From Stackebrandtia endophytica (GTDB lineage: Bacteria; Actinomycetota; Actinomycetes; Mycobacteriales; Micromonosporaceae), in the NCBI RefSeq assembly GCF_006716355.1, contig NZ_VFOW01000001.1, forward strand, positions 2,666,001 to 2,730,000: a DNA stretch of 64,000 nucleotides, written 5' to 3'. The first letter of the stretch is position 1, and the number at the start of each line of letters is the position of its first letter. The notes beneath the pieces are model-generated. The model searched no databases, was not told where the DNA came from, and was given only the letters and a program-made list of their open reading frames with translations. Of the stretch, positions 1 to 2,558 are shown one piece after another. A program made the translations under genes and the position numbers.

Positions 1-927
1 GATACCCGTCGGCTTGACCGGGATGATCTCGTCGGTGCCTGCCCGCAACGCGGTCGCGATCGGATTACACCCGGCCGACTGAGCGCCGAATACCCTCGAC
101 TCACCACCCTCGATGAGTCCGATCTCGACCATCTCGGTGAAAGCCTTGTCCACTTTGGTGAGCAGCTCACCCGACGCCATCGGGATGACCACCTGCTCCG
201 GAATCCGCCACCCCAACTGCTCCGCCACCTCGTAACCGAGCGTCTTGGAACCCTCGGCGTAGTACGGGCGCACGTTGACGTTGACGAAGGCGGTGGCCTC
301 GAACTCGTCGGTCTCGGTCAGCTCCGAACACAACCGGTTGACGTCGTCGTAGGAACCCTCGATCGCCACCAACTCACCACCGTAGACCGCGGTGGTGACA
401 ACCTTCCCGGTCTCCAGATCATGTGGGATGAACACAATCGACGGACGACCGGCGCGGGCCGCGTGCGCGGCGACCGAATTGGCGAGGTTCCCGGTGGAGG
501 CGCAGGCATACCGTTCGAAACCCAACTGAGAGGCGGCGGTCAACGCCACCGACACCACCCGGTCCTTGAAGGAATGCGTCGGGTTGGCGCTGTCGTCCTT
601 GACCCACAACGACTTCATGCCCAGCTCCGCAGCCAGAACCTCGGCCTTGATCAGCGGGGTCATACCGGGGTTGAGAGTGACCCGGGTAGCCGGATCGACA
701 CCTGCGGGAAGCAACGCCGCGTACCGCCAGATGTTGTGCGGACCGGCCTCGATGTCGGCGCGAGTCACGCGGCCCAACGCGTCGAGGTCGTAGTCGACCT
801 CCAACGGGCCGAAACACTGCCAGCAGGCGTGCTGCGCGGCCAGCGGATAGGTGGCTTGACAGTTGCGACAGATCAACCCGACCGCAGGACTGTCGGTGAA
901 CGGGTTGGCGGATACAGACGTGCTCAC
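1..927 (-). CDS. thrC: threonine synthase, 3'-truncated by window edge
   Basis: PLP-dependent enzyme that converts O-phosphohomoserine to threonine in the cytoplasm. I translated this strand by hand from a GTG at 925-927, preceded by GAGGAGG; 309 codons lie in the window and the C-terminus is missing. The N-terminus has a small zinc-ribbon-like CxxC...CxxC (CRNC, CWQC), as in one class of actinobacterial threonine synthases. It is followed by the PLP-lysine motif around SANPTHSFKDR and the ASTGN phosphate loop. A SAM-I riboswitch sits directly upstream, so SAM level is expected to control translation; that is unusual for a threonine gene. It could be a paralogue recruited to methionine metabolism; the gene to its left is outside the window. 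Confidence 0.88.
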   Translation of the reverse strand, partial: MSTSVSANPFTDSPAVGLICRNCQATYPLAAQHACWQCFGPLEVDYDLDALGRVTRADIEAGPHNIWRYAALLPAGVDPATRVTLNPGMTPLIKAEVLAAELGMKSLWVKDDSANPTHSFKDRVVSVALTAASQLGFERYACASTGNLANSVAAHAARAGRPSIVFIPHDLETGKVVTTAVYGGELVAIEGSYDDVNRLCSELTETDEFEATAFVNVNVRPYYAEGSKTLGYEVAEQLGWRIPEQVVIPMASGELLTKVDKAFTEMVEIGLIEGGESRVFGAQSAGCNPIATALRAGTDEIIPVKPTGI

Positions 928-937
928 AGAGGCTCCT

Positions 938-1042
938 CCTCATCTACCCGGTGATCACACACCGGCCGGAATTGGCACCTTCCGCATGAACGGTGGTTGC
1001 CGAAGCGTCACAGGGCCGTTCCCTCAGCTTCTCTGGATGAAG
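938..1042 (-). promoter_or_regulatory. SAM-I (S-box) riboswitch in the thrC leader
   Basis: Read on the minus strand, the leader carries S-box hallmarks in order: CUUCAUCCAGAG, then GAAGC-UGAGGGA, GGCCC, UGUGAC-GCUUC, CGGCAACC and GGUGCCAAUUCC. A P4 hairpin follows (CCGGUG-N6-CACCGG), then GAUGAGG. GAAGC pairs with GCUUC around the UGA/UGA kink-turn, and CUUCAUC pairs with GAUGAGG to close P1. The 3' strand of P1 (938-944) overlaps the thrC Shine-Dalgarno (935-941). SAM binding should therefore hide the ribosome-binding site, which implies translational repression. Confidence 0.85.
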
Positions 1043-1120
1043 TACGCCGCGAAGTTTACCGACAGACCGGCAGCTGACGCAATGCGACATAAACCACTGA
1101 ACAGGCCTGAGAACACGACG

Positions 1121-1149
1121 CGGCCCGAGCTCACGGTGAGCTCGGGCCG
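1121..1149 (-). terminator. GC-rich hairpin downstream of the surface-protein gene
   Basis: A perfect 13-bp stem (CGGCCCGAGCTCA / TGAGCTCGGGCCG) with a 3-nt loop lies 12 bp past the stop of the gene ending at 1162. There is no long U-tract, as is common in high-GC actinobacteria. It separates that gene from the thrC riboswitch. Confidence 0.7.
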
Positions 1150-1161
1150 GGTGTTACACGG

Positions 1162-2277
1162 TCAGCGGTTGCGCATCTCGCTCACCATGTCGTCGGCTTT
1201 GCCGTACAGGTAGTTGGTCATGGTCTCCTCGTCGACACTGGTGGTGCGGGTGGTGACGGTGAGAACTACGAACGAGCCGGCGGCGTCCACGATCCACAGG
1301 CCCTGTTCGTAAGCGGAGATCAACGAATCGACCTGGAACCGGTAGTCGTCTTCGAACTCGGCGTCGTTCAGTTCCTCCCGCAGATCAGTGGCGGAGCTGG
1401 AGTCCTCCAGCGCCAGAACCAGCTGCGACACCCGGACGTCCCCGCCCTCGGCGTCGTGAACGATCTCGAAGGCGTACTGGCAGCCGCTGTCGGTGAGCTT
1501 CGTCCCGCGGGCCACATCCGAACACGAGGCGTAGTCCCAGCCGTTGTAGTACTCGGCGGACAGGCTGGTTCCCTCGAAGCTGCCCGACCAGGACGCGGCA
1601 TAGTCCAGGTAACTGGCGTTCTCGGATACCGGGTCCTCGCTCGGGGGATCCGAAGGTTCCTCCGACGGCGGGGCGCTGGACTGCTGCCCGGTCGGGGGAT
1701 CATCGTCACCGCCGCCACCGATGTTGATGACCAGGAAGGTGCCCAGCGCCAGCAACAGCACCACACCGATGACCGCACCGACGATCAGGCCGGTGTTACT
1801 GCTCTTCTGCGGTTGAGGCATCGGAGGGCCGAAGCCGCCCATTCCGGGCTGGGGCATCCCGGGCTGGCCGTAGCCGGGCTGGCCCATCGCACCCGGGCCG
1901 CTGACCGGGGGGCCGCTCATCGGTGGACCACTCATCGGAGGCGCGCTCATGGGCGGAGCGGCCGGATTGTATCCACCCGGTGACGACTGCTGCGGCGCGC
2001 CCCAGGCGTCGGCGGCAGGAGAGGCGTACGGGTCCGGTTGCTGCGCATACGGATCCGGCTGCGGGGCGTACGGATCGTTCGCCGGCGGATACTGTGGCTG
2101 TTGTTGGGCATACGGGTCGGCGGCCGACGGGTACTGCGGCTGCGGAGAGGCGTACGGATCGTTCGCGGGCGGTGGAGGGTACTGCGGCTGTTGCGGCGCA
2201 TAGGGATCCGGCTGCTGCCCATACGGGTCGTTGGGCGGGCCACCCGGGTAACCCTGGGGCGGTGGGGGGTAAGTCAT
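1162..2277 (-). CDS. proline-rich membrane-anchored surface protein (paralogue of 2559-3323)
   Basis: A 371-residue protein of unknown function. Residues 1-160 are low-complexity P/Y/Q/G repeats (YPPPP, DPYA, QPQYP, PPMSGPP). A single hydrophobic segment (GLIVGAVIGVVLLLALGTFLVI) follows, then a Pro/Ser/Glu linker and a folded C-terminal domain of about 150 residues with one Cys pair (ASCSDV ... GCQYAFE). Topology suggests a cytoplasmic proline-rich tail and an extracellular sensor-like domain. I start at the ATG (2275-2277), preceded by AAAGG, rather than the longer open frame to 2427, because the upstream part looks non-coding. The C-terminal domain resembles that of the next gene, so the two are likely duplicates. 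Confidence 0.8.
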   Translation of the reverse strand: MTYPPPPQGYPGGPPNDPYGQQPDPYAPQQPQYPPPPANDPYASPQPQYPSAADPYAQQQPQYPPANDPYAPQPDPYAQQPDPYASPAADAWGAPQQSSPGGYNPAAPPMSAPPMSGPPMSGPPVSGPGAMGQPGYGQPGMPQPGMGGFGPPMPQPQKSSNTGLIVGAVIGVVLLLALGTFLVINIGGGGDDDPPTGQQSSAPPSEEPSDPPSEDPVSENASYLDYAASWSGSFEGTSLSAEYYNGWDYASCSDVARGTKLTDSGCQYAFEIVHDAEGGDVRVSQLVLALEDSSSATDLREELNDAEFEDDYRFQVDSLISAYEQGLWIVDAAGSFVVLTVTTRTTSVDEETMTNYLYGKADDMVSEMRNR

Positions 2278-2558
2278 GGTCCAATGCACCTTTCCATACG
2301 TCACGCCGACGTGGCTTGCGCTCCCCTCGCGGCTATCAGTTCCGATTGTGGGGCACGCCCGCAATAGCGCCGACCCACCATCGACCACGTACCGTGAGCA
2401 ATTCAGAACTCGATTTCGCGCCGACATTCATTCACTCGTGTCCAATGCGGCCCGCACCCCGTTCATTCCAACGCGAGCCGACACCGTCCAACAAGGTGGC
2501 ACCATGCTACACGCGACAATTAAATGGATGAATGTCGCTATTTTCCGACGCTCTGGGC

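What the first reader, a model, noticed from the sequence alone, without database searches (positions are those of the whole stretch)
938..1042. SAM-I riboswitch controlling a threonine synthase gene, with P1 overlapping the Shine-Dalgarno
All S-box elements (kink-turn UGA/UGA, GGCAACC, GGUGCCAAUUCC, P4 hairpin, GAUGAGG) are present on the minus strand. The 3' strand of P1 shares four bases with the thrC Shine-Dalgarno. S-box elements normally govern methionine/SAM genes. SAM-dependent repression of threonine synthase runs opposite to plants, where SAM activates the enzyme. The gene may be a thrC paralogue used at the homoserine-phosphate branch point for methionine.
Basis: partly seen in the sequence, partly recalled or inferred. 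Interest (0 to 1): 0.75.

Follow-up and report, generated by a model that had tools for sequence, protein, structure and literature searches.

The report
SAM riboswitch on a homocysteine-synthase gene
A well-known kind of RNA switch that senses S-adenosylmethionine sits directly in front of a gene that looks like threonine synthase but most likely makes the methionine precursor homocysteine, so the pairing is ordinary feedback control rather than a paradox.

Summary
Window 937-1043 (minus strand) is a full-length SAM-I riboswitch (Rfam RF00162, 89.9 bits), the only one found in this genome, ending 9 nt before the GTG start of a threonine-synthase-like gene. That gene is probably not threonine synthase. 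The genome has a separate thrC beside homoserine dehydrogenase, and the S-box gene falls in another clade with CxxC pairs and NPTHSFKDRV at the PLP lysine. No MetX or MetA was found, so this gene is the likely route from O-phosphohomoserine to homocysteine. This matches MetM of Streptomyces albulus, reported with an upstream SAM riboswitch; I know that 2024 paper only through a citing paper's passages. All 80 relatives kept from the search carry an S-box at the same place. Two details are less standard: no metO carrier gene is adjacent (the nearest relative is CysO of a mec-cysO-cysM cluster), and the Shine-Dalgarno lies in a small recurrent hairpin next to P1. SAM binding and the direction of control were not tested, and folding calculations do not reproduce a switch for this leader.

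The parts
937..1043 (-). SAM-I (S-box) riboswitch aptamer, full length
   Evidence: Rfam RF00162, 89.9 bits, E 4.4e-20, model 1-108/108
1036..1043 (-). P1 5' strand
   Evidence: Rfam alignment
937..944 (-). P1 3' strand (GAUGAGGA)
   Evidence: Rfam alignment
935..940 (-). Shine-Dalgarno AGGAGG, three bases of it paired in P1
   Evidence: sequence; script
929..941 (-). short hairpin GAGG-AGGAG-CCUC with the Shine-Dalgarno in 5' arm and loop; competes with P1 for bases 941-938
   Evidence: fold of the leader 3' end, -4.6 kcal/mol; a hairpin is predicted in 43 of 44 distinct leader ends
1..927 (-). MetM-type (thrC-like) PLP enzyme, GTG start, 5' part of a 424-aa gene that continues beyond window position 1
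   Evidence: ORF in L002 7654-8928; PALP 215.9 bits; clade, motifs and CxxC pairs

Best explanation
A SAM-I riboswitch controls translation of a MetM-type homocysteine synthase that family models name threonine synthase. The enzyme takes O-phosphohomoserine, which ThrC also uses, and with sulfur from a carrier protein makes homocysteine for methionine and SAM. When SAM is high it binds the aptamer and stabilises P1, whose 3' strand overlaps the Shine-Dalgarno just before the start codon, so ribosome entry falls. Shown here: the aptamer, its place, its conservation, the enzyme's clade, and the lack of MetX and MetA hits. Inferred: the enzyme's reaction, its carrier (probably CysO), and the OFF direction at the level of translation. 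The confidence below is for a SAM-I switch on a MetM-type gene; for P1 overlap as the main switching element I would give about 0.5, the hairpin rival below being a variant of the same reading.
For: Aptamer: 89.9 bits, the only SAM-I found in the genome. 80 of 80 kept relatives (80 of 228 found) have an S-box core directly upstream of the same gene, 79 by pattern and L026 by eye; 20 of these 80 were given to Rfam and 20 of 20 passed gathering, L026 included, at 62.8-93.3 bits. In 149 genomes of the phylum, 33 of 58 MetM-like matches (57 genomes) and 13 of 53 metX matches have SAM-I within 600 nt upstream; one link of each kind (G135, G102) rests on a SAM-I match below the gathering score. 11 genomes have both enzymes, Fisher p 0.0014, not corrected for kinship. 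Own genome: best MetX match 20.5 bits, where matches counted as MetX in the phylum score 372-478 bits as best hits; no MetA/HTS match. A ThrC lies next to homoserine dehydrogenase and is 33% identical to this protein. 38 of 38 MetM-type and 30 of 30 ThrC sequences separate; NPTHSFKDRV in 95 of 101 against NPTGSFKDRG in 30 of 30; CxxC pairs in 100 of 101 against 0 of 30. A MetO-like carrier ORF is in the fetched stretch of 14 of 20 more distant relatives by a screen, and of L107. MetM with a SAM riboswitch in S. albulus: PMC12172450 passages. No terminator-like site in 900-1250 and 9 nt between aptamer and start codon, so transcription attenuation has little room.
Against: The MetM paper was not held and no characterised MetM sequence was compared. 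No carrier gene is adjacent in this genome. In the own leader the unconstrained minimum-energy fold lacks P1 (-49.9 against -49.0 kcal/mol with P1 enforced), and Shine-Dalgarno accessibility is the same with P1 enforced (0.35) or its 5' strand blocked (0.31), so energy alone does not show a switch. 25 of 58 MetM-like matches in the phylum sample have no SAM-I within 600 nt, and 56 of 102 SAM-I hits are linked to neither metM nor metX. A cystathionine gamma-synthase-type gene is present (673 bits, cut-off 513), so another route to homocysteine is not excluded. The authors of PMC12172450 report that the Microcystis homologue works mainly as threonine synthase and as threonine deaminase at high threonine (passages).
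Confidence: 0.85

Rival explanations
1. The gene is a true second threonine synthase and SAM shuts it off, so that threonine supply follows methionine status.
For: TIGR00260 thrC over cut-off (246.9 against 167.1 bits); the 5 distinct solved sequences matched at E 1e-10 or better are all threonine synthases; the Microcystis homologue is reported to have threonine synthase activity (PMC12172450 passages).
Against: A separate ThrC beside homoserine dehydrogenase exists; distinct clade and motifs; no MetX or MetA found, so homocysteine synthesis would lack its usual first step; carrier-protein ORFs near it in other lineages.
Confidence: 0.1
2. Same riboswitch and gene, but the switch works through the small Shine-Dalgarno hairpin rather than P1 overlap: the hairpin is the sequestering element, and aptamer folding decides whether it forms, in some lineages together with P1 and in others instead of it.
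For: A hairpin is predicted in 43 of 44 distinct leader ends; in 21 of 44 at most 5% of base-shuffled tails fold as well, about 2 expected. P1 overlap with the SD is not general: none in 75 of 81 by the script. In the Xanthomonas SAM-I a hairpin holds SD and AUG in the SAM-bound state (PMC7270179 passages).
Against: The leaders are related, so these are not independent tests; energies are small (mean -4.5 kcal/mol); no control with other genes' start regions was run; in the own leader hairpin and P1 exclude each other, which would rather have SAM open the hairpin.
Confidence: 0.3
3. The riboswitch acts by transcription termination.
For: Transcription attenuation dominates among Firmicutes riboswitches (PMC2258182 passages).
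Against: No terminator-like site in 900-1250; 9 nt between aptamer and start codon; [quoted passage not shown]
Confidence: 0.04

Closest known systems
metM of Streptomyces albulus (Hasebe et al. 2024, known here only from PMC12172450 passages)
   Same: threonine-synthase-like gene assigned to making homocysteine from O-phosphohomoserine, with a SAM riboswitch upstream
   Different: here no carrier gene lies next to it; the best carrier candidate is CysO in a mec-cysO-cysM type cluster. That metO lies beside metM in Streptomyces is recalled, not from the passages
SAM-I riboswitches with the RBS in the 3' side of P1 (Barrick and Breaker 2007, PMC2258182, passages read)
   Same: Shine-Dalgarno partly in the P1 3' strand in the own leader
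   Different: 75 of 81 leaders examined have no P1 base in the SD window; a small hairpin follows
Xanthomonas campestris met-operon SAM-I (PMC7270179, abstract and passages read)
   Same: SAM-I acting at translation, with the SD in a short hairpin
   Different: a different target operon; sensing of uncharged initiator tRNA was not examined here
Threonine synthase ThrC (TIGR00260)
   Same: PLP enzyme family, model score over cut-off, presumably the same substrate
   Different: separate clade; CxxC pairs; NPTHSFKDRV instead of NPTGSFKDRG

Membership tests
SAM-I riboswitch (RF00162) | covariance-model score over gathering, full length | tested here: met
   89.9 against 44.4 bits, 1-108/108
SAM-I riboswitch (RF00162) | located in the 5' leader of a methionine/SAM-related gene | tested here: met
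   9 nt before the start of a MetM-type gene; the methionine role of the gene is inferred
SAM-I riboswitch (RF00162) | binds SAM and changes expression | not testable with these tools
   needs in-line probing and a reporter
MetM homocysteine synthase | threonine-synthase-like PALP protein in a clade apart from ThrC | tested here: met
   38 of 38 and 30 of 30 separated; the S. albulus protein itself was not compared
MetM homocysteine synthase | SAM riboswitch upstream | tested here: met
MetM homocysteine synthase | metO-type carrier gene adjacent | tested here: not met
   the one GG-ending ORF of L002 is not carrier-like and the four ThiS matches of the genome lie elsewhere. Carrier ORFs are near the gene in 14 of 20 loci L105-L124 by the screen plus L107, so adjacency is common, not known to be required
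MetM homocysteine synthase | makes homocysteine from O-phosphohomoserine | not testable with these tools
   enzyme assay needed
Threonine synthase ThrC | groups with ThrC found by the hom-linked own ThrC | tested here: not met
   33% identity to the own ThrC
Threonine synthase ThrC | TIGR00260 over cut-off | tested here: met
   246.9 against 167.1 bits; the model does not separate the two clades, since the own ThrC also passes (291.7 bits)

The most novel reading that the evidence does not exclude
In this actinobacterial family MetM has no dedicated carrier, and one sulfur carrier, CysO of mec-cysO-cysM, feeds both cysteine synthase CysM and the SAM-riboswitch-controlled homocysteine synthase. 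SAM would then decide at translation how shared carrier sulfur is split between cysteine and methionine.
Probability: 0.4. Interest if true: 0.5.

Novelty: new member of a known kind. Interest (0 to 1): 0.3.

Why it matters
It removes an apparent paradox (SAM repressing threonine synthesis) and suggests that genes which family models name threonine synthase in Stackebrandtia, Glycomyces, Actinoplanes and their kin belong to methionine synthesis. The missing adjacent carrier gene, with a single CysO-grade carrier in 56 of 61 family genomes, gives a simple biochemical question: can one carrier serve both sulfur amino acids?

Tried and rejected
Threonine synthase proper was considered and disfavoured on clade, motifs and the separate ThrC beside homoserine dehydrogenase. 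Transcription attenuation was judged unlikely. A carrier gene next to the MetM-type gene was looked for in L002 and in the flanks (2.5 kb or less) of the 80 relatives by a screen for ORFs of 60-149 aa ending in GG: L002 and eight of the 80 gave such ORFs, none carrier-like by eye. The screen needs that exact ending and missed L107, where one search shows a carrier, so it can miss others. The second carrier-like gene of the own genome (L016, 43% to the MetO-like protein of L105, 36% to CysO) was considered as the partner; it sits beside a MauE gene and a gene with weak redoxin matches below Pfam's cut-off, so it is not favoured and not excluded. Energy-based proof of the switch failed for the own leader; over all leaders P1 lowered SD accessibility in 57 of 81 and not in 24. 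A promoter TTGCGT-18-TAAACT at 1082-1053 was seen by eye, but the scan reports none, so it is not claimed.

Rows and limits. In the phylum sample 25 of 58 MetM-like matches had no SAM-I within 600 nt; some lie near contig ends, two are pieces of one gene in G127, and one (G034) is only 35% identical. Of 102 SAM-I hits, 6 are below the gathering score. Of 60 MetX rows I used 53, one per genome, and left out 7 weaker second matches. No MetX row passes the model's own cut-off of 500 bits, controls included, so I used E-values. The tree used 38 of the 101 MetM-type sequences; the first support value printed for the MetM node was 0.263 under an arbitrary root, and after re-rooting the same split showed 1.0 on the ThrC side. 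In one search the leader of L098 was cut at a wrong GATG; its segment was replaced by hand. MetM was not searched in the 61 family genomes, and no search was left for it.

Full report
The minus strand at 1043-937 matches the Rfam SAM-I model over its full length at 89.9 bits, E 4.4e-20, the only gathering-level RNA match in the window and the only SAM-I match found in the genome. The leader is compact: P1 3' strand 944-937, Shine-Dalgarno AGGAGG 940-935, GTG start 927-925, with 9 nt between aptamer and start codon.

Family models name the gene threonine synthase (TIGR00260, 246.9 bits, cut-off 167.1), but several lines say otherwise. The genome has another threonine synthase, in L006, overlapping the end of a homoserine dehydrogenase gene and 33% identical to this one. 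In a tree of 38 MetM-type sequences (chosen from 101) and 30 ThrC sequences (the own one and 29 from the phylum sample) the two sets separate completely. The PLP-lysine motif is NPTHSFKDRV in 95 of 101 of one set and NPTGSFKDRG in 30 of 30 of the other; N-terminal CxxC pairs are in 100 of 101 against 0 of 30. The genome shows no homoserine acetyltransferase beyond a 20.5-bit match (best hits counted as MetX elsewhere in the phylum score 372-478 bits) and no homoserine succinyltransferase. These are, from general knowledge, the usual ways to activate homoserine for methionine.

A published system fits. A 2025 paper on Microcystis says that Hasebe et al. [quoted passage not shown] that MetM converts O-phosphohomoserine to homocysteine; and that metM of S. 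albulus, unlike the Microcystis thrC, has an upstream SAM riboswitch. It also says that the gene next to the Microcystis thrC resembles metO of S. albulus, a putative sulfur carrier (PMC12172450, passages only). The 2024 paper is not held. From memory, not from a call: its abstract says that metO lies downstream of metM and that thiocarboxylated MetO is the sulfur donor. In three same-class genomes of 7.9-9.7 Mb (unnamed; Streptomyces-like by size, an inference) the relative is 58% identical and a MetO-like match follows the gene within about 60 bases in each. By a screen, 14 of the 20 distant loci L105-L124 hold a carrier ORF of 88-92 aa ending in AVAGG; these 20 were chosen because they have both the gene and a SAM-I.

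The arrangement is conserved. All 80 relatives kept from the genome collection (228 found, best 80 kept) have an S-box core just upstream, 79 by pattern and L026 by eye. Twenty of these 80, chosen for spread, were given to Rfam and 20 of 20 passed, L026 included. In 149 genomes drawn from the phylum, 57 have a MetM-like match at E 1e-60 or better, 53 a MetX match at 1e-40 or better, 11 both (Fisher p 0.0014, uncorrected for kinship). 33 of 58 MetM-like matches and 13 of 53 metX matches have SAM-I within 600 nt upstream, one of each through a SAM-I match below the gathering score. So in this phylum the S-box often stands before an enzyme that commits homoserine to methionine, though 56 of 102 SAM-I hits stand elsewhere and 25 of 58 MetM-like matches have none nearby.

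How it works is partly inferred. With 9 nt between aptamer and start codon and no terminator-like site, control of translation is the natural reading. RBS inclusion in P1 is a described SAM-I mode (PMC2258182 passages). Yet by script the overlap is 2-3 nt in only 6 of 81 leaders and none in 75. More general is a small hairpin just before the start codon, predicted in 43 of 44 distinct leader ends; in 21 of 44 at most 5% of shuffled tails fold as well. Enforcing P1 lowered SD accessibility in 57 of 81 leaders (means 0.47 against 0.61 with the P1 5' strand blocked), but not in the own leader (0.35 against 0.31), whose unconstrained minimum-energy fold does not contain P1. The direction of control is therefore an inference from the gene's role.

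The carrier is the open point. The own genome has four ThiS-family matches, none beside this gene. The best is CysO-like, 57% identical to the MetO-like protein of L105, in a cluster of JAB-domain, ThiS and PALP genes of the mec-cysO-cysM kind (a recalled name). The three Streptomyces-like genomes have two strong matches each to it, at 66-70% and, next to metM, at 54-57%, while the own genome has only itself and one remote match at 36%. In 61 family genomes searched with the MetO-like protein, 58 have a match, and read off the table only G164 and G167 have more than one at 47% identity or above. MetM presence was not tested in those 61. A carrier shared with cysteine synthesis is therefore possible and untested.

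Verdict: a sound riboswitch call, a misread target, and a known kind of system in another group.

Noticed in passing
window 1122-1148: 13-bp inverted repeat (GGCCCGAGCTCAC / GTGAGCTCGGGCC) just after the upstream ORF 1162-2427 (minus), seen by eye; no T run, and the terminator scan reports none.
   Followed up: no
L002 4054-6724 (genome 2662053-2664723): On the opposite strand to the metM-type gene, beyond the window: solute-binding protein, permease and ABC ATPase with TOBE domain, looking like a molybdate-type transporter (Pfam; the substrate is a guess).
   Followed up: partly
L016 1498-1872 and L164 2956-4081: A second ThiS-like carrier (43% to the MetO-like protein of L105) beside a MauE gene and a weakly redoxin-like gene; many family genomes have a similar second match.
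   Followed up: partly
phylum sample: 56 of 102 SAM-I hits are linked to neither metM nor metX; some genomes have three or four, e.g. G111.
   Followed up: no
L018 1492-2835: Cystathionine gamma-synthase-type gene well over cut-off (673 against 513 bits) in a genome without MetX or MetA hits; it may serve reverse transsulfuration instead (inference).
   Followed up: no
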